Positions 49,571 to 61,299 of a stretch of DNA of 64,000 bases are shown piece by piece. The stretch comes from Planctomycetota bacterium. GTDB lineage: Bacteria; Planctomycetota; Phycisphaerae; Sedimentisphaerales; Anaerobacaceae. The stretch's first letter is position 1, and each line of letters starts with the position of its first letter. The stretch lies in the NCBI GenBank assembly GCA_019456255.1, contig VRUG01000004.1, forward strand, positions 62,001 through 126,000. Reading direction: 5' to 3'. The notes under the pieces were generated by a model. That model did not search any database. It saw only the letters and a program-made list of their open reading frames with translations, and was not told the DNA's origin. Made by a program: the position numbers and the translations under genes.

Positions 49571-50743
49571 TCACTTTTTACTTTTTATTGTTTCCTTCAC
49601 GGTTTCCCTTGCCCAACTATCCGCCTCAAGAAGCTCGGCCAAACAAACTTCCCGTTTAACACTATGTCTACTCAAACAATCCTCTATTAGTTCGACAATA
49701 TCGATAAATTTAATATTACCTTCCAAAAATTCCGCAACTGCCTGCTCATTAGCGGCATTAAACACCGCCGCCGACGTCCCGCCGGTCCTGGCAACCTCAA
49801 AGCCAAGCTCCAAGGACCTGAAAACCTCAACATTAGGCTTAGCAAACGTCAATTTGCCCAACTCGTCAAGCTGCAAACGATGCGAGATACCCTTAACACG
49901 ACGAGGATAACTCAACGCATATTGAATCGGAAGGCACATATCAGGAGTACCTAACTGTGCGATCACCGACCCATCGACAAACTCTACCAATGAATGGACT
50001 ATCGACTCAGGATGCACCAGCACTTCAATTTTAGACACTTCCGTCTCAAATAGCCAGCGAGCCTCAATCACCTCCAACGCCTTATTCATCATCGTCGCTG
50101 AATCTATCGTTATCTTAGGTCCCATTTCCCACGTCGGATGAGCCAATGCCTCTTCCAATGTCACATCGGCCATCTCGTCAAGGCTCTTCTCCCGAAAAGG
50201 CCCACCGGACGTCGTTAATATTATTTTCTCAACCTCAGACAAACTACCAGACGCAAGAGATTGAAATATCGCACTATGCTCACTGTCAACCGGCAAAATT
50301 TCAGCGCCGTTCTCCTTCGCAGCTTTCATCAAAAGTTCACCAGCGATAACCAAAGGCTCCTTGTTCGCTATCGCCAAACGCTTACCCTTCTTAGCCGCCG
50401 CCAATACCGCACCAAGACCAGCCGCGCCAACAACAGCTGTAACTACCGTATCAACAGAATCCAATTGGGCGACCGTCTCCAGACTCCCGCCTCCGCCCAA
50501 TATCTCAACGTCACTATCACCAACCAACTCACTTAGCTTATCAACTAAATCCACGCGAGTTATCGCAGCTACTTTAGGCTTATACTTTAAAACCTGCGAT
50601 GCAAGCAGCTCAACATTACTATGACCGGTCAACGCCAATACCTCGTACCGCTCACCGCCAACGCTGTTAAGTGAATCTATCACGCGTAAGGTGTTTTGAC
50701 CGATAGAGCCCGTTGAGCCCAATATAGCTATGTTTTTACTCAT
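49571..50743 (-). CDS. dxr: 1-deoxy-D-xylulose-5-phosphate reductoisomerase
   Basis: Second enzyme of the MEP pathway; converts DXP to methylerythritol phosphate with NADPH. 390 residues. NADPH loop NIAILGSTGSIGQNTLRVID (4-23); NKEPLVIAGELL; active-site LPVDSEHSAIFQSL; GPFREKSLDEMADV, with ATMMNKALEVIEARWLF. Fully intact. The first 24 coding bases and the -10 box (TATAAT, complement of 50752-50757) belong to a 50-bp sequence repeated at 52,908-52,957, so the present start was rebuilt by the insertion described below. The -35 position now holds a poor GTGGTT. No ribosome site precedes the ATG, consistent with a nearly leaderless message. Confidence 0.96.
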   Translation of the reverse strand: MSKNIAILGSTGSIGQNTLRVIDSLNSVGGERYEVLALTGHSNVELLASQVLKYKPKVAAITRVDLVDKLSELVGDSDVEILGGGGSLETVAQLDSVDTVVTAVVGAAGLGAVLAAAKKGKRLAIANKEPLVIAGELLMKAAKENGAEILPVDSEHSAIFQSLASGSLSEVEKIILTTSGGPFREKSLDEMADVTLEEALAHPTWEMGPKITIDSATMMNKALEVIEARWLFETEVSKIEVLVHPESIVHSLVEFVDGSVIAQLGTPDMCLPIQYALSYPRRVKGISHRLQLDELGKLTFAKPNVEVFRSLELGFEVARTGGTSAAVFNAANEQAVAEFLEGNIKFIDIVELIEDCLSRHSVKREVCLAELLEADSWARETVKETIKSKK

Positions 50744-50768
50744 AGACAGGCATTATAACCACTGACCC
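50719..50768. repeat. 50-bp direct repeat, dxr-proximal copy
   Basis: Identical to 52,908-52,957 at 48 of 50 positions, the last 41 being identical without a gap. It spans the dxr start codon, 24 bases of coding sequence and 25 bases of upstream DNA including the -10 box. Confidence 0.95.
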
Positions 50769-50862: not shown

Positions 50863-50891
50863 TTGACTTTGAATATTTTTATTAGTAGAAT
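50863..50891 (+). promoter_or_regulatory. Promoter of the C39-like gene
   Basis: TTGACT, a 17-base spacer and TAGAAT, 40 bases before the start codon, which has an AAGGAGA ribosome site. A second TTGACA at 50818-50823 lies at the palindrome and may drive an alternative start. Confidence 0.65.
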
Positions 50892-50931: not shown

Positions 50932-52458
50932 ATGGCCCAAAAAGAAAAGGGGGTAACGTTGCAATTAGTAAAAGTATCATCAAAATCTTCTTTGTTTGAG
51001 CTTACTGGAAAATTTGGACACGATAAACCTTTAAAAAGGATATTTCAAATCATATTGTCTCAAGGCTGTAAAACAATTGTAGTAGAAAATGAATACGAAG
51101 ATTCTGATTACAAGAATGAATATGAAAATTTTTATAAAAAGTTATTTAAAACATATGCTCAAAACACTCAGCGACTACACTTTTTTTCTTCAAATATCAC
51201 TAAAACCTCACTAGGCAAGCTTGGTAGTTTTGAAAACACGTATTTAGGATTTTGCGTTTTACGACCTTTTCAATATCAAAAAGTTGTCAATGCTATCATA
51301 AAACCAACAGAAGATTGCAATCCGAGCAAACGATCTTTTGTTTTATGCCAAGAAGATTTCAATATAGAAATCAAGATCAATAGTCGAAACACTCAAAAAT
51401 TAAAAATTAGAGGTTTCCCATTTAAACAGCAAGATGGACAATTGGGTTGCTGCGCACATGCATCACTGGCAACTATAGACCACTTCTTAGCACATAAAAA
51501 CAGAAAAAAGCCTTGCGATTTAAGTGATATAATTGAAAAAGCTGCTCAAGTTCCAGATACCAGAAGAGCAGTCCCTTCAACCGGTTTAAATGCTGTACAA
51601 ATTTCGCAGGCATTAAAAGGTATGGGATATGTTCCTCTAATTTATCAATATGGAGAAGGCATTCGTAGCCCCTTCCCTGCCGAAAGAGTAATTTATCATT
51701 ATATGGAGTCTGGGATCCCCATAATGCTTGGTATCCCTACTTCGTCAAGTGGTCATGCTTTAACAATTATTGGGCATTCTTTTGAACCTGATATGTGGTG
51801 GGCACTGGCACAGAGCGAGTACTACAGAAGACGACCATCTGGAGGACCATATCATTGTAGCACAACATGGATTCAAAACTTTATTATTCATGACGATAAC
51901 TTTGGGCCATATTTAACTATACCAAAGGAATTTATATGGGAAAAAGCTGCTAAGGAAGGACTACTGATTGTTGTTCCACTACCTGAAGATGTTAACATAC
52001 AAGGAGAAGATGCAGAAATATATGCTTATCGTATGATTTCAGATCAAATAATTACAGAAAAAATGATGGAAATGAGCCTCGAAAACAAAATTACTCAAAA
52101 ATGGTGCGAAGTTTTCTTTGATCACCTCCAGAATGAAGATCTGGTTTTGCGAACATGTTTATTAGATTCTAAAAAATTTAAAAAAGAGTATACTTCTGAA
52201 AATCTTAAAGAATTTTACAAAACTCTAGCCATGCCAAATAAAATTTGGCTAACAGAAGTCAGCATACCTGAGCTCTTTTGCCAGTCTCGTCTTCGCTTAG
52301 GAGAAGTTATTACAGATTCTACATCAAATATGAAATTTGGGCATTCTTTTCTCGCTATTCATTTGCCTGGAATTGTCGTGACAAGAGATGTAAATACTGA
52401 AAAAATAAAATATTTCCCTCTAAAAGAAGATTTGCCTTTCGGTCACATTATCAGATGA
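50932..52458 (+). CDS. C39/papain-like cysteine-peptidase-domain protein
   Basis: 508 residues, no signal peptide. Residues 1-160 are a separate alpha/beta domain of unknown type. Residues 161-330 look like a bacteriocin-processing/C39-type papain fold: Gln167/168 in PFKQQDGQLGCCAHASLAT with Cys173 or Cys174 as nucleophile, His275 in SSSGHALTIIGHSF, and Asp321/322 in IIHDDNFGPY. The order Gln-Cys-His-Asp matches a catalytic set. The C-terminal 170 residues are helical, with no known motif. There is no ABC transporter nearby, so it is not a bacteriocin exporter. It could cut a cytoplasmic host or phage protein, or act as a transpeptidase; unproven. AT-rich codon use sets it apart from dxr and rseP. 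Confidence 0.7.
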   Translation: MAQKEKGVTLQLVKVSSKSSLFELTGKFGHDKPLKRIFQIILSQGCKTIVVENEYEDSDYKNEYENFYKKLFKTYAQNTQRLHFFSSNITKTSLGKLGSFENTYLGFCVLRPFQYQKVVNAIIKPTEDCNPSKRSFVLCQEDFNIEIKINSRNTQKLKIRGFPFKQQDGQLGCCAHASLATIDHFLAHKNRKKPCDLSDIIEKAAQVPDTRRAVPSTGLNAVQISQALKGMGYVPLIYQYGEGIRSPFPAERVIYHYMESGIPIMLGIPTSSSGHALTIIGHSFEPDMWWALAQSEYYRRRPSGGPYHCSTTWIQNFIIHDDNFGPYLTIPKEFIWEKAAKEGLLIVVPLPEDVNIQGEDAEIYAYRMISDQIITEKMMEMSLENKITQKWCEVFFDHLQNEDLVLRTCLLDSKKFKKEYTSENLKEFYKTLAMPNKIWLTEVSIPELFCQSRLRLGEVITDSTSNMKFGHSFLAIHLPGIVVTRDVNTEKIKYFPLKEDLPFGHIIR

Positions 52459-52474: not shown

Positions 52475-52639
52475 TTAGATTCTAATACTTGATGTTAAAG
52501 AGTTTTTGCGCCATGCATCAAGCGCATTCAGTATTTCTCTAATATCTTCAATAGGCTTTTCTGATAACTCCCTTATTTGTTCCTCGGTAAATGGCCTTTC
52601 CTCGGGCAAAACAAACCTTTGAGACTTACTTTTAGCCAA
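52475..52639 (-). CDS. 54-residue acidic small protein, convergent with the C39-like gene
   Basis: The frame starts at TTG 52639 with AGGAGGTG six bases upstream, an almost perfect ribosome site. The product is AKSKSQRFVLPEERPFTEEQ-like: a basic start, then an acidic helical stretch (IRELSEKPIEDIREILNALD) and a basic end. No membrane segment and no family recognised. It ends 16 bases beyond the C39-like stop codon on the other strand. A 21-codon ORF (ATG GGA ATG ...) just upstream ends inside the start region and might couple translation. Because the two genes are the only cargo of the repeat-bounded segment, an inhibitor or partner role is worth testing. Confidence 0.65.
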   Translation of the reverse strand: MAKSKSQRFVLPEERPFTEEQIRELSEKPIEDIREILNALDAWRKNSLTSSIRI

Positions 52640-52907: not shown

Positions 52908-52932
52908 CCAATATTACTATGTTTTTACTCAT
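52908..52932 (-). pseudogene. Orphaned 5' stub of dxr in the distal repeat
   Basis: ATG at 52932-52930 begins MSKNIVI, matching the first residues of Dxr (MSKNIAI) except one, after which the sequence diverges into island DNA and soon reaches a stop. It is the piece of dxr left behind, or copied, by the insertion. Confidence 0.8.
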
Positions 52933-52957
52933 AGACAGGCATTATAACCACTGACCC
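52908..52957. repeat. 50-bp direct repeat, distal copy
   Basis: Second copy of the dxr 5' sequence. Differs from 50,719-50,768 by two adjacent bases near its left end. Confidence 0.95.
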
Positions 52958-53029: not shown

Positions 53030-53353
53030 ATGGAAAAAGATGCTGCCCAAAAAGTTTGGTCTGGACAGATGTGCAAAAATGCCCTTACAACTAAAGGGCC
53101 CGGATCAGGCGCAAAACTAACAGTGACAAATGAAAATCTTCAACTAAAAGGACTTCTGGGAGATTTCACTTTCACTACAGATACCGTAGATGTAATAGAA
53201 AAAGCTGGCTTCTTCCCCTGGTTTGGGACAGGATTTAGAATTGTTCACAAAATCAACGATTACCCGTCAAAAATTATGTTCTGGCCCCTATTCGCTCGTT
53301 CAAAAACAATACTAAAACATCTAAAAGACTTAGGATACAATGTAAGATTATAA
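53030..53353 (+). CDS. Small PH/GRAM-like protein of unknown function
   Basis: 107 residues, soluble, without a signal peptide. A run of short strands (GSGAKLTVTNENLQLKGLLG, FTFTTDTVDVIEKAGFFPW, TGFRIVHKINDYPSKIMFWP) followed by one C-terminal helix (ARSKTILKHLKDLGY) is the order of a PH-like barrel. Proteins like this can bind lipids or peptides; no function is assignable. No ribosome site precedes the ATG, which fits a leaderless message. The 3' end overlaps the convergent lipoprotein gene by 6 bases. Confidence 0.65.
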   Translation: MEKDAAQKVWSGQMCKNALTTKGPGSGAKLTVTNENLQLKGLLGDFTFTTDTVDVIEKAGFFPWFGTGFRIVHKINDYPSKIMFWPLFARSKTILKHLKDLGYNVRL

Positions 53354-57264: not shown

Positions 57265-58539
57265 ATGGCATCTATACACGGAAACTGGTTTCATTCGAGA
57301 AGTAGTTCTCATTTGGGTGAACTTTTGACAGTGAGAAGCTTGGTTTTAGAAAGCCAAAAACCAGAATATATTGGATTTTCTTGGTCAGCTGGTAGACAAA
57401 ATAATCAAAAAATGTATCAATTTGCTGCAGTAGCAAATATACAACCTTCCACAATGCAAACTAAAATTCGCACGATGATACGTTACGGATTTTTAAAGGA
57501 GGGTAGTATTTGTCCTCTTGTTTGGACAAGAATGGGAAGTCTTTGGAATGATCTTTATACGGTTGGAAATATAGCAGCAGCAAAACAGATTTATGAATTG
57601 ATATTAACCACTTCCCTTGCGATGTTTGCATTCAATCAAACTAGTGCGCAGTATAGCCTAAACCCCACAAATGGTGAAATGCCTCTAAAATTTTTACTAA
57701 ATGCCTTAAGCAACGATAATTCGATATCATTAAAAGAATTTGCATCTTTAGTTGACGGAGGTACAACAAGAGTTGGCGGTAATAGTTCTTATTGGAGGAC
57801 AGACCTCGTAAATTCAGGATTATTTCAGGAAGATGGCGGTAGATTGTGTTGCACTGGCAAATACGAACGATTTGTCGAAAATATAAAAAAATTCACTCCA
57901 GATAGCTTGTTTACCGATGAAGATTGGCAAGCTATAAGGGATAATCCACTAATTAATTCTTCTCCTTTTAAGAATTCGGTAAAGGAGATTTTTGAAAACA
58001 TACTACAGCAACAAAACATAGAGGAACAAATCACCGATGGAATTTATACAGCTCCAATTGTAGATGTTATTTCGGAACAGGAGGAATTGTATATACCAGA
58101 GATTGATATTTTAAGCACAAATACAAGATTTGCACAAAGTGTAAGACGTGTTAGGGTTGCGGCTTGGTCAATAAGAATCAAGAAGAAATACAATCATTTA
58201 TGTGTAGTTCCTAACTGTGATGTTAACGGGAAAATTTTTGTTGAAGCCGCACACATCAAGCCAGATAATATCCCAGAAGATATAATGCCACATAGGGCAC
58301 ACATACTCAACGGCCTCTGTTTATGTCGTCATTGTCATGTTGCTTTCGACAAAGGATATTTTTCATTGACCGACGATCACAAAATTATTACATCAGTTAA
58401 ACTTAATGAAATACCTGATCAAAATATTAAAACCGTCATTTTTTCCAGTTGCAACAGGCCAATAAAAAATCGGTTAGATAATCGATTACCGCTTGTTGAA
58501 TTTATACAATTTCATAGAACCAATCGTTTTAAAAGTTAG
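57265..58539 (+). CDS. HNH restriction endonuclease (putative)
   Basis: 424 residues. Two helical, winged-helix-like modules fill residues 1-240 and probably read DNA. The C-terminal HNH nuclease (about 310-370) has zinc cysteines Cys313/Cys318 and Cys354/Cys357, with His330 in EAAHIKP, Asn349 in HILNGLCLC and His358 in HCHVAFDKGYF, matching the HNH_2 pattern. It is followed at once by two DNA methyltransferases, so it is almost surely the nuclease of a restriction-modification system. An AAAGGAT site precedes the ATG. Low GC codon use marks it as transferred. Confidence 0.8.
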   Translation: MASIHGNWFHSRSSSHLGELLTVRSLVLESQKPEYIGFSWSAGRQNNQKMYQFAAVANIQPSTMQTKIRTMIRYGFLKEGSICPLVWTRMGSLWNDLYTVGNIAAAKQIYELILTTSLAMFAFNQTSAQYSLNPTNGEMPLKFLLNALSNDNSISLKEFASLVDGGTTRVGGNSSYWRTDLVNSGLFQEDGGRLCCTGKYERFVENIKKFTPDSLFTDEDWQAIRDNPLINSSPFKNSVKEIFENILQQQNIEEQITDGIYTAPIVDVISEQEELYIPEIDILSTNTRFAQSVRRVRVAAWSIRIKKKYNHLCVVPNCDVNGKIFVEAAHIKPDNIPEDIMPHRAHILNGLCLCRHCHVAFDKGYFSLTDDHKIITSVKLNEIPDQNIKTVIFSSCNRPIKNRLDNRLPLVEFIQFHRTNRFKS

Positions 58540-58546
58540 GGTATCA

Positions 58547-59977
58547 ATGCCTGAAGTTTTACATAACATACATTGTGATGGGTTTGAAGCTATAAGCTTA
58601 ACCGCCAAATCCTCGAAAAATCTTTCTCTATTTAAATCGGAAGATTCAAATCGACAAGCAGAGCAATTAAGGATATTTAGAAAGCTTGAAAAAAAACTTT
58701 TGCTTTTTAATACAAGTTCATTTGAGAATCAAGTTCACTTTCAATTTGCTTACCAAACACCTGTTCAAAGATGGTTTCCATATCGTGAAGGTTATTCGGT
58801 TGAACTTGTTAATTCGTTTATTAAAAGTTTAAAAATAAGCGGTAATATATTTGATCCTTTTTCTGGAAGCGGAACGACATTATTGGCAGCAAGAAACAAT
58901 AACATTAACTCACTAGGTGTTGACGTAAATCCGATATCTGTGCTGGTCGCTAGAGTTGAAAACGAAAAATATTCAACATTTAATATTAATAATATTAGGT
59001 CACAGATCGAAACCATCAAGGCATTAGAAAGGCCCAAACAAGAATACCAAACAACATTTAATTTGGCGAATAAAGTTTTTAATGCGGACATCCTTCAGTC
59101 TCTCTTGCACTTTAAAAACTATATTAAGTCGATAGAGGATAAAAAAATAAGAGACTTGGTGTTCGTGGCTTGGCTTTCAATAATTGAGGAAGTATCAAAT
59201 ATCAAGAAAGAAGGAAATGGAATCAAATATAAAAACAGAAAAAGAACACCTTCAGGCTACATTAACATTGATAAAGAAGTGTGGGAGAATCAAAATTTCC
59301 CAGAGGACAAATTTGTATTTGTAAAGTTTAAACTGTATAATCAACTAGAAGCTATTTTTTATGATGTCGTAAATAGTTATGGTAATTGTGAAAAACGTCC
59401 TAAAATTTATCAGGGGAGTTGCTTGGAGTTTAATAGATTATTTAGTGATGAAATTGAGCTCACTTTCTTTTCGCCTCCATATTGTAATTGCTTTGATTAT
59501 TTTGAAATACACAAAGTGGAGCTATGGTTGGGTGATTTTATAAAAGACAAAGAAGATTTTAGGAAATTGAGAAATACTGGTTTTCGTTCAAATACAAATT
59601 CTCTAAATTATAAGCCAATTGTTTATAAAAATAAAAATCTTGAATCACTAATTTCTCTTATAGACACAGAGAGGCTATGGAGTAAAAAAATCCCCAGTGT
59701 TATAAGGGGATACTTTGATGATACAAATACTTTATTGAATAAACTTTACGATCAAACTGTACATGGTGGACATGTTGGCATAGTGGTTGGTAATTCAGCT
59801 TATTCAGGTGTTATAATTCCTACTGATACATTAATTGTAGAAATAGCCCAGCAAATTGGTTTTAAAGTAAAAAATATTTTTGTTACTCGCCATCTAACAA
59901 CAAGTTCGCAACAGAAAAAAAAACTTTCCTCTTTAAAAAATTATTTACGAGAGAGTGTGATCATTATAGAAAAATGA
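58547..59977 (+). CDS. DNA methyltransferase 1 of the restriction-modification island
   Basis: 476 residues from ATG 58547, eight bases past the endonuclease stop codon and preceded by TTAGGG; a frame from 58493 would overlap the endonuclease. Motif I is DPFSGSGTT (103-111) and motif IV is SPPY (309-312). SPPY favours an N4-cytosine enzyme, though N6-adenine is possible. The roughly 200 residues between the motifs leave room for a target-recognition domain. It protects host DNA from the neighbouring nuclease. AT-rich codons as in the rest of the island. Confidence 0.82.
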   Translation: MPEVLHNIHCDGFEAISLTAKSSKNLSLFKSEDSNRQAEQLRIFRKLEKKLLLFNTSSFENQVHFQFAYQTPVQRWFPYREGYSVELVNSFIKSLKISGNIFDPFSGSGTTLLAARNNNINSLGVDVNPISVLVARVENEKYSTFNINNIRSQIETIKALERPKQEYQTTFNLANKVFNADILQSLLHFKNYIKSIEDKKIRDLVFVAWLSIIEEVSNIKKEGNGIKYKNRKRTPSGYINIDKEVWENQNFPEDKFVFVKFKLYNQLEAIFYDVVNSYGNCEKRPKIYQGSCLEFNRLFSDEIELTFFSPPYCNCFDYFEIHKVELWLGDFIKDKEDFRKLRNTGFRSNTNSLNYKPIVYKNKNLESLISLIDTERLWSKKIPSVIRGYFDDTNTLLNKLYDQTVHGGHVGIVVGNSAYSGVIIPTDTLIVEIAQQIGFKVKNIFVTRHLTTSSQQKKKLSSLKNYLRESVIIIEK

Positions 59978-61299
59978 GTAAAAAGCAAAAAATAATTTAT
60001 ATAAAAGAAATAATACCGGATAGAGTTAAGAATAATTCGGTTTTGAACATTTCTACAAAAGGGGTTACTTCTTTAACACATGGATTTCATAAATACCCAG
60101 GGAAATTTATTCCTCATATTCCTAGATGGGCTATTAATAAATATCTGAATGGTGATAAGGGAACAATTTTAGATCCCTTCTGTGGCTCAGGTACGACATT
60201 AATTGAAGGGGTATTGGCAGGCCATAACGTTGTTGGAATTGATATTGATCCTTTATCTTCTCTTATATCTAAAGTTAAAATTACGCCTGTAAATTTAAAG
60301 AAACTAAAAGAAATTGCGGATTGGCTTGTTCTATCCATTAAGAAAGCAAAAAAAGGGGAATTTAAACCTGAATGTGAGACAATTAATCATTGGTTTACGA
60401 AAGATGCTATTAATAAGTTATCGATTATTAGAACATCAATAAATCAGATCCCGGGGAAATTTGGTAATAGAAAATCCATAAAAGACATTCAAGACCTTTT
60501 GGTGGTTTGCTTTTCATCAATTATCAGACATGTTTCTAATGCAGACAACGAATCACAAAAAACATATGTCTCCCACACTAAAGTAAAAAATCCCAAAGAG
60601 GTTTATTCTGTTTTTTTCCCTAAACTGGAATTATTTATTGATAGGATCACGAAATTTACAAAATTAATTAATTCAGATGTGAGTGCCAAAATAAGCTGCA
60701 CAAGTAGTAATAAGTCGTTGCATCAAAAATTTAAGGTGATTAAATTTGACTTAGTAATTACTTCGCCACCTTATATAAAAGCCCTAGATTACATTTATAA
60801 CCAAATGGTAGAATTATTTTGGATTGGAGACTTGTTTGATCTACAGACTCAATCTAAACAGAATCAGAAAAAGGAAGGATATATTGGAACAAAACATCTA
60901 CGCAAGGCTAAGTTTAAGGATTACACGCCTTATAAAAACATATTTGGTATAAATAGACTCGATGAAAAACTCCAAGAGGTATTTGTCACAGATAAAAAGA
61001 ATGGGCATAAACATTCATTCGTTACATTTAAGTATTTTACTAACATGGAAAAACATTTTATTGAAATTGCTAAATGCATCTGTAAGGGAACACCTTATAT
61101 TATGGTTGTTGGAAATAGTACCGTAAGCAATATTTATTTTGATACGGTAGATTTTTTAATACAGATTGCTGAACAAAGTGGTTTTAAAGCAAGAAATAAA
61201 TGGGGATATGAAATTAAGAATCGTTATATGAGATTTGACAGAAAAGGGCGTGGAGGTATTATTGATATCGACTGGGTTATAGATTTCGTCAGAAAGTAA
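59974..61299 (+). CDS. DNA methyltransferase 2 of the restriction-modification island
   Basis: 441 residues. GFHKYPGKFIPHIPRWAIN (38-56) is a signature of a broad DNA methyltransferase family; motif I is DPFCGSGTT (67-75) and motif IV is SPPY (264-267). It overlaps the first methyltransferase by four bases (ATGA), so the two are translated together. The two enzymes are not close copies: N-termini and spacing differ. Two methyltransferases with one nuclease is the arrangement expected for an asymmetric recognition site, one enzyme per strand. Confidence 0.82.
   Translation: MSKKQKIIYIKEIIPDRVKNNSVLNISTKGVTSLTHGFHKYPGKFIPHIPRWAINKYLNGDKGTILDPFCGSGTTLIEGVLAGHNVVGIDIDPLSSLISKVKITPVNLKKLKEIADWLVLSIKKAKKGEFKPECETINHWFTKDAINKLSIIRTSINQIPGKFGNRKSIKDIQDLLVVCFSSIIRHVSNADNESQKTYVSHTKVKNPKEVYSVFFPKLELFIDRITKFTKLINSDVSAKISCTSSNKSLHQKFKVIKFDLVITSPPYIKALDYIYNQMVELFWIGDLFDLQTQSKQNQKKEGYIGTKHLRKAKFKDYTPYKNIFGINRLDEKLQEVFVTDKKNGHKHSFVTFKYFTNMEKHFIEIAKCICKGTPYIMVVGNSTVSNIYFDTVDFLIQIAEQSGFKARNKWGYEIKNRYMRFDRKGRGGIIDIDWVIDFVRK

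What the first reader, a model, noticed from the sequence alone, without database searches (positions are those of the whole stretch)
50932..52458. C39/papain-like cysteine peptidase without a transporter, as island cargo
Gln-Cys-His-Asp residues sit in the order and spacing of a papain/C39 fold (Cys173/174, His275, Asp321/322), yet there is no ABC transporter, no signal peptide and no known partner. N- and C-terminal domains are unfamiliar. Being the main cargo of a mobile segment, it may serve defence, stability or host manipulation.
Basis: partly seen in the sequence, partly recalled or inferred. Interest (0 to 1): 0.65.

Follow-up and report, generated by a model that had tools for sequence, protein, structure and literature searches.

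The report
Mobile protease with leader-mimic partner
A papain-like protein-cutting enzyme and a tiny partner protein, whose tail probably plugs the enzyme's active site, sit together in a small mobile gene cassette whose relatives occur across many bacteria and a few archaea, sometimes beside bacterial ubiquitin-like systems.

Summary
The 508-aa ORF at 50932-52458 has a confident papain/C39 fold, and its Gln-Cys-His-Asp residues are kept in a large, unnamed, patchily distributed family.

(1) It has a partner. Relatives typically carry a 50-90 aa gene just upstream. In the window and its two closest relatives the partner gene is convergent and downstream (window 52475-52639, minus strand).

(2) The partner's C-terminus has the spacing of a C39 leader peptide that stops where a C39 peptidase would cut: hydrophobic at -12, acidic at -9/-8, Leu at -7. 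AlphaFold on a relative suggests, indirectly, that the tail lies in the substrate groove.

(3) The cassette is flanked by a 50-nt direct repeat duplicating the 5' end of dxr. Unrelated relatives show similar flanking duplications.

In 15 of 93 loci, on several branches, the pair lies beside a JAB-E1 gene of bacterial ubiquitin-like systems. The window's genome has no multiubiquitin gene.

Best reading: a mobile protease-inhibitor (toxin-antitoxin-like) conflict module in which a leader-mimic protein restrains a cytosolic protease. Fold, partner, mobility and linkage are computed; inhibition, toxicity and defence are inferred. No experiment bears on them.

The parts
50719..50768 (.). Left flanking direct repeat (50 nt); contains the dxr start codon and upstream region
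   Evidence: the repeat finder D1, 96% identity to right copy, spacing 2189; 41 nt exact; only two copies in the genome at up to 3 mismatches
50863..50891 (+). Promoter-like site upstream of the peptidase gene (consensus match only)
   Evidence: 10 of 12 positions; such sites are about as frequent in shuffled sequence (12 found, 8.8 expected)
50932..52458 (+). Papain/C39-like cysteine peptidase gene, 508 aa, predicted three-part: N-terminal alpha/beta domain (about 1-125), papain-like core (about 130-355), C-terminal domain (about 360-508)
   Evidence: domain limits are approximate, from the secondary structure and the VIA ranges
51430..51432 (+). Codon of Gln167 (oxyanion-hole candidate)
   Evidence: 8 of 8 in A1, 74 of 75 in A3
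51451..51453 (+). Codon of Cys174 (predicted nucleophile)
   Evidence: 8 of 8 in A1, 75 of 75 in A3
51754..51756 (+). Codon of His275 (predicted catalytic His)
   Evidence: 8 of 8 in A1, 75 of 75 in A3
51892..51897 (+). Codons of Asp321-Asp322 (one of them the predicted third catalytic residue)
   Evidence: 8 of 8 in A1; 75 of 75 in A3 but that set was found with a pattern holding DD
52475..52639 (-). Small partner gene, 54 aa from TTG 52639 (59 aa if GTG 52654 is the start), convergent with the peptidase gene, stop codons 16 nt apart; C-terminus SLTSSIRI. AGGAGG lies 6 nt before the TTG
   Evidence: similar to partners of L013 (z 6.6) and L014 (z 8.5) in the same place and orientation; meets the tail motif
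52908..52957 (.). Right flanking direct repeat (50 nt)
49571..50743 (-). dxr (1-deoxy-D-xylulose 5-phosphate reductoisomerase), host gene whose 5' end is duplicated by the insertion; not part of the cassette
   Evidence: Pfam PF08436, PF13288, PF02670; repeat overlaps its start

Best explanation
The cassette encodes a cytosolic papain/C39-like peptidase and a small helical partner. The last 12 or so residues of the partner imitate a C39 leader peptide but end at the P1 position. The partner docks its leader-like helix on the peptidase and lays its free C-terminus in the active-site groove, so it acts as a pseudo-substrate or product-type inhibitor. While the partner is present the protease is silent. 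If the partner is lost, removed or modified (loss of the element, phage takeover, or in some loci an adjacent ubiquitin-like conjugation system), the protease is freed and cuts host or phage proteins. The pair would thus work as a toxin-antitoxin-like conflict and stability cassette. Shown by computation: fold, conserved catalytic residues, partner gene, tail motif, flanking duplications, repeated linkage to JAB-E1 genes. Suggested indirectly by one model: tail in the groove. Inferred only: inhibition, release, toxicity, target.
For: Papain/C39 fold with conserved Gln-Cys-His-Asp. Small ORF ending -10 to +130 nt upstream in 84 of 89 testable loci against 146 of 348 control genes. Partner C-termini share a motif: strict pattern in 28 of 85 module loci against 33 of 6313 other small ORFs; leave-one-out matrix 28 of 84 above the 99% level against 0 of 172 control ORFs. 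Window, L013 and L014 partners, not used in making the pattern, all meet it and align with each other. Same layout as the C39 leader consensus L(-12)XXXE(-8)L(-7)XXXXG(-2)G(-1) with a helix at -10 to -4 (PMC6959990, passages). The model of relative L061 places a helix at -10 to -6 and a beta bridge at -3, with a new bridge residue at 294 in the loop after the catalytic helix, which the window-only model lacks at the equivalent L219. Mobile, dispensable context: patchy distribution, flanking repeats, plasmid copies, an IS-broken copy. Link to JAB-E1 genes in 15 of 93 loci, at least 8 changes forced on the tree.
Against: No experiment. No coordinates were available, so docking rests on secondary-structure letters and pLDDT of one read-through model of a relative. 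In most loci the strict tail motif is not met (57 of 85); partners differ much outside the tail, and some run 1-4 residues past the motif (L029, L031, L035, L036, L052). L077 and L103 show no partner. The fixed rule also picks chance ORFs, as in L013. The partner has no recognisable DNA-binding domain. The window genome lacks multiubiquitin and has only a weak ThiF match to the JAB-E1 query, so the ubiquitin link cannot explain the window copy. Many near neighbours are ordinary genes. In the window the partner is convergent, unlike typical toxin-antitoxin operons.
Confidence: 0.5

Rival explanations
1. The small protein is a substrate or modifier, not an inhibitor: its C-terminus is an acyl donor that forms a thioester with Cys174 and is joined to targets (a ligase or transferase working like a leader-type protein tag), or the peptidase trims a short C-terminal extension from it.
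For: Papain-like enzymes can transfer as well as hydrolyse: phytochelatin synthase (6tho, 2bu3) is among the best structural matches. The conserved residues run to the free C-terminus. One clade, mostly the one linked to JAB-E1, has 1-4 residues after the motif (L029, L031, L035, L036, L052). JAB-E1 linkage.
Against: In the loci that meet the motif nothing follows the P1 position, so there is no peptide bond to cut there. No ATP-using activating enzyme accompanies most copies (78 of 93 without JAB-E1).
Confidence: 0.18
2. The peptidase is a deconjugating (DUB-like) enzyme or processing protease of bacterial ubiquitin-like systems.
For: JAB-E1 gene within about 3 kb in 15 of 93 loci, multiubiquitin and DUF6527 in some. 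Ubiquitin-like proteases (ZUFSP/ZUP1, UfSP, Josephin) are among structural matches.
Against: 78 of 93 loci show no JAB-E1, 33 of the 42 with good flanks included. The window genome has no multiubiquitin gene. The JAB domain already fills the deconjugating role in these operons (PMC1779556, passages).
Confidence: 0.15
3. The small ORF is an activator or adaptor (co-factor) of a processing peptidase with a cellular role outside conflict.
For: The two genes are kept together; tail docking alone does not tell inhibition from allosteric activation.
Against: Very patchy presence (5 of 60 relatives; 12 of 392 genomes of the phylum), flanking duplications, plasmid copies, an IS-broken copy and copies with split frames (L027, L018) fit a dispensable conflict module better than a housekeeping role.
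Confidence: 0.12

Closest known systems
C39 peptidase domains of peptidase-containing ABC transporters (ComA, PCAT1, LahT) and their double-glycine leader peptides
   Same: Fold of the core; leader-like spacing of the partner's C-terminus and helix position; weak Peptidase_C39_2 profile match in 10 of 75 members
   Different: No transporter, extra N- and C-terminal domains, partner lacks Gly-Gly and stops at the cut position
Staphopain-staphostatin (papain-like protease with a small cognate inhibitor that lies in the active site)
   Same: Papain-like protease (staphopains Z 13.1-13.4) with an adjacent small-protein gene and an active-site-directed inhibitor
   Different: Staphopains are secreted (recalled); staphostatin is a beta-barrel (recalled) whereas the partner is modelled as helices plus a tail; here the free C-terminus is the inhibitory part
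Type II toxin-antitoxin modules
   Same: Small gene just upstream or overlapping a larger gene, mobile, patchy
   Different: No DNA-binding domain recognised in the two partners scanned; toxicity untested; the window pair is convergent
Bacterial polyUbl/JAB-E1 operons (type 6e of Iyer et al. 2006, PMC1779556)
   Same: In 15 of 93 loci the pair is beside a JAB-E1 gene, in some with multiubiquitin, DUF6527 and an E2-like gene (the E2-like reading is by eye)
   Different: The passages of that paper seen here list no papain-like peptidase or leader-like partner for type 6e; the window has none of these genes

Membership tests
Papain-like cysteine peptidases (clan CA fold) | Papain-like fold | tested here: met
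   pLDDT 92.1 model; Foldseek and VIA matches to C39, staphopain and other papain-like enzymes
Papain-like cysteine peptidases (clan CA fold) | Gln, Cys, His, Asp/Asn in order, conserved | tested here: met
   Q167, C174, H275, D321/D322 each 8 of 8 in A1; C174 and H275 75 of 75, Q167 74 of 75 in A3. Geometry in the model not measured
Papain-like cysteine peptidases (clan CA fold) | Peptide-bond hydrolysis | not testable with these tools
   needs an assay
C39 peptidases of ABC transporters | Match to a C39 profile | tested here: inconclusive
   PF13529 Peptidase_C39_2 in 10 of 75 members, best 5.1e-7; none for the window protein
C39 peptidases of ABC transporters | Fused to an ABC transporter | tested here: not met
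   508-aa soluble ORF without a transporter domain; no transporter among the ten window genes scanned
C39 peptidases of ABC transporters | Substrate with double-glycine leader | tested here: not met
   Partner tail has the -12/-8/-7 layout but [TS][LIV] or other residues, not Gly-Gly, at -2/-1
Type II toxin-antitoxin | Two adjacent genes, small partner plus larger effector | tested here: met
   window pair
Type II toxin-antitoxin | Effector toxic alone, neutralised by partner protein | not testable with these tools
   needs expression tests
Type II toxin-antitoxin | Antitoxin with DNA-binding domain (common, not universal) | tested here: inconclusive
   Only weak hits under the curated cut-offs for two partners, L016 and L061; the window partner was not scanned
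polyUbl/JAB-E1 operon type 6e | JAB-E1 and multiubiquitin genes alongside (window copy) | tested here: not met
   None beside the window genes; no Multi_ubiq in its genome; only a weak ThiF match elsewhere
Known anti-phage defence families (PADLOC 2.0.0) | Match to a PADLOC model | tested here: not met
   None for the window protein; in A3 only two single-member matches at E 0.007-0.008

The most novel reading that the evidence does not exclude
A previously undescribed class of conflict module in which a free-standing leader-peptide mimic holds a cytosolic C39-like protease as a pseudo-product inhibitor. Bacterial ubiquitin-like conjugation systems have repeatedly adopted this protease-inhibitor pair as their downstream executioner, so that tagging or removal of the mimic fires the protease.
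Probability: 0.22. Interest if true: 0.87.

Novelty: new variant of a known kind. Interest (0 to 1): 0.64.

Why it matters
If right, this is a wide family (135 members from one DNA pattern alone) without a name in the databases searched, and with a testable mechanism: leader recognition reused as inhibition. It would give polyUbl/JAB-E1 operons, described in 2006, a candidate downstream protease, and would add a compact protease-based module to toxin-antitoxin or phage-defence systems. The two-gene cassette is small enough to test directly in a laboratory strain.

Tried and rejected
Transporter-linked processing: no ABC transporter among the ten window genes scanned. Phage origin: no tblastn match in 50,697 phage records; one relative in IMG/VR (L011). 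Paralogues in the own genome: none. RNA antitoxin: no Rfam family in 49-62 kb. Known family names: none convincing for the 75 members in NCBIfam, PHROGs or PADLOC and only a weak Peptidase_C39_2 match in Pfam; no convincing PDB sequence. N- and C-terminal domains: the fold searches barely cover them, so I say nothing about their fold. The C-terminal extension of L009/L010-type members was not analysed. The neighbour scan used 106 of the 213 neighbour proteins counted. PADLOC BilD matches in two neighbours were not traced to a gene. Signal peptide absence is by eye only. The tree is the quick tree; the careful search did not finish. That no description was found in print rests on full-text searches in the held library only. 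PMC1779556 and PMC6959990 were seen as passages only; all other papers only in search listings. Rows dropped before counts: duplicate loci of the same record or genome (L001, L012, L002, L021, L095, L096, L098, L104; the last four judged duplicates from length and neighbours) and the IS-broken copy (L005, L006, L101, L105); also 4 loci with under 200 nt upstream. One search used a gap limit of -12 instead of -10, hence 85 rather than 84 loci. L018, L035 and L064 have a small ORF just outside the rule.

Full report
Observation. The ORF at 50932-52458 is intact, 508 aa. The window protein has no match in Pfam, NCBIfam, PADLOC or PDB sequences. AlphaFold2 with a 75-row family alignment gives pLDDT 92.1 and pTM 0.92. 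The core matches C39 peptidase domains and other papain-like enzymes: Foldseek ComA 3k8u E 2.9e-4; VIA Z 13.5, rmsd 2.5, 134 residues. Staphopains, phytochelatin synthase, UfSP and ZUFSP are in the same list. The DD motif was part of the search pattern for that larger set, so its invariance there is biased.

Family. tblastn found 4 plasmid records. A whole-genome search found a match in 5 of 60 close relatives, and a profile found one in 12 of 392 genomes of the phylum. One DNA pattern in 84,980 species genomes gave 135 relatives, 80 kept. The 75 rows put on a tree fall in 19 groups at phylum level, archaea included; the labels need 35 changes on the quick tree where 18 is the least possible, which fits horizontal spread but does not prove it. 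The window's nearest relatives are L013 (Sedimentisphaerales, 51%) and L014 (Planctomycetes).

Partner. Listing ORFs upstream of each family member showed, in most, a 50-90 aa ORF ending just before the peptidase gene or overlapping its start by 4 nt. With a fixed rule, 84 of 89 testable loci have such an ORF, against 146 of 348 other long genes in the same DNA. The rule also picks chance ORFs, so I tested the C-termini. A leave-one-out position matrix puts 28 of 84 above the 99% level of other small ORFs, against 0 of 172 control ORFs (Mann-Whitney p 1.9e-17). Related loci are not independent, so p is only indicative. A strict pattern (hydrophobic -12, Leu -7, hydrophobic, Ala or Pro -3, hydrophobic -1) is met in 28 of 85 loci against 33 of 6313 control ORFs; 57 of 85 do not meet it. 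The pattern was written after looking at these sequences, so the three held-out partners are the fairer test. The window and L013 seemed to lack a partner, and L014 has too little upstream DNA. All three have one downstream on the opposite strand, tail to tail with the peptidase gene. The window's small protein aligns to those of L013 and L014 at z 6.6 and 8.5, with 0 of 2000 shuffles as high, and all three meet the strict pattern.

What the tail looks like. The preferred residues are hydrophobic -12, Asp -11, Glu -9/-8, Leu -7, Phe/Tyr -3, Thr -2, Ile/Leu -1. In the PCAT1-CtA paper the C39 leader consensus is L(-12)XXXE(-8)L(-7)XXXXG(-2)G(-1), with a short helix at -10 to -4, a hydrophobic knot made by Leu -7 and Leu -12, and the double glycine in the active site (PMC6959990, passages seen). 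The partner therefore has the layout of a C39 leader that stops at the cut site, without Gly-Gly. A model of relative L061, in which the natural stop between the two genes was read as Gly, has pLDDT 90.6. Over the partner's helices the block means are mostly 83-90; there is a helix at residues 49-53 (positions -10 to -6), and Phe56 (-3) forms a beta bridge. An isolated bridge residue appears in the peptidase at 294, equivalent to window L219, in the loop before a helix that follows the catalytic helix; the window-only model has none there. In papain this region holds Gly66, which pairs with the P2 residue (recalled). I had no coordinates, so docking in the groove is an inference from secondary-structure letters, and the partner of the bridge at 56 is not shown.

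Mobility. The cassette lies between 50-nt direct repeats at 50719-50768 and 52908-52957 (41 nt exact, spacing 2189). The repeat includes the start of dxr, and a 40-nt core occurs only twice in the genome. Among 53 other loci tested, long exact repeats flank the module in L089 (154 nt), L027 (53 nt) and L074 (34 nt), and a 21-nt one in L087; the best reversed-sequence control was 14 nt. With mismatches allowed they are 206 nt (99%, spacing 2133), 64 nt and 45 nt. In L027 and L074 the repeats enclose more than the two genes. In the window the only ORFs I recognise as genes between the repeats are the two described, and neither is a recombinase. How the cassette moves is open.

Neighbours. The most frequent neighbour cluster is a JAB-ThiF (E1) gene: 15 of 93 loci, and 9 of the 42 with at least 3.5 kb on both sides. 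By HMM search multiubiquitin is in 7 non-redundant loci and DUF6527 in 6; Pfam confirms examples of each, though its Prok-JAB match to the L052 protein is below cut-off. This matches operon type 6e of Iyer et al. (PMC1779556, passages). An HTH gene often precedes the pair there. On the tree the link needs at least 8 changes on starred branches, so it arose or was lost repeatedly. The window's genome has no Multi_ubiq match, and 3 of 119 relatives have one. Among 106 other neighbours a few hit defence-type models, each in 1-3 proteins, and many are ordinary genes.

Interpretation. A small protein, nearly always nearby, with a tail shaped like the product of its neighbour protease, in mobile, patchy cassettes, is best read as an inhibitor holding a conflict protease. 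The alternative that the tail is a donor or substrate cannot be excluded. A pure deubiquitinase role is less likely because most loci show no Ubl genes.

Novelty. The enzyme fold and the idea of a protease-inhibitor or toxin-antitoxin pair are known. The family, the leader-mimic partner and its repeated pairing with JAB-E1 genes were not found in the databases used or in the literature searches listed under Tried and rejected.

Noticed in passing
L005 2956-3510 (genome G047): Nine copies of a repeat spaced 62-65 nt (core AATCTACGACAGTAGAAATTTTATAAGGCCTTTAGAC), which looks like a Cas12a-type (type V-A) CRISPR array (type recalled, not tested), about 1 kb from a peptidase copy broken by a transposase gene.
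   Followed up: partly
L005/L006 (genome G047): The peptidase gene of this relative is interrupted by an IS-type transposase gene and has in-frame stops.
   Followed up: partly
window 57265-61299: An HNH-type endonuclease gene followed by two type II-like DNA methyltransferase genes in a low-GC stretch: a restriction-modification-like island a few kb from the cassette.
   Followed up: no
window 53030-53353: A 107-aa ORF just outside the right repeat with no family match above cut-off; by eye it resembles a small PH-like domain.
   Followed up: no
L049 2130-3698 and 9542-11104: Two family members of the peptidase in one 21-kb locus (Bradyrhizobium), with a caspase-like PADLOC hit between them.
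   Followed up: no
L008 7592-9373: A caspase-domain protein (Peptidase_C14) 475 nt upstream of the peptidase on a Hymenobacter plasmid, opposite strand.
   Followed up: no
L079, L086 downstream of the peptidase: An AAA_13-type ATPase gene on the opposite strand about 400-450 nt downstream, conserved between two Planctomycetota.
   Followed up: no
L035 and L040, upstream of the peptidase: Small Ubl-like ORFs beside the JAB-E1 gene that the multiubiquitin profile did not pick up; the L040 one ends in Gly-Gly as printed (Ubl reading by eye).
   Followed up: no
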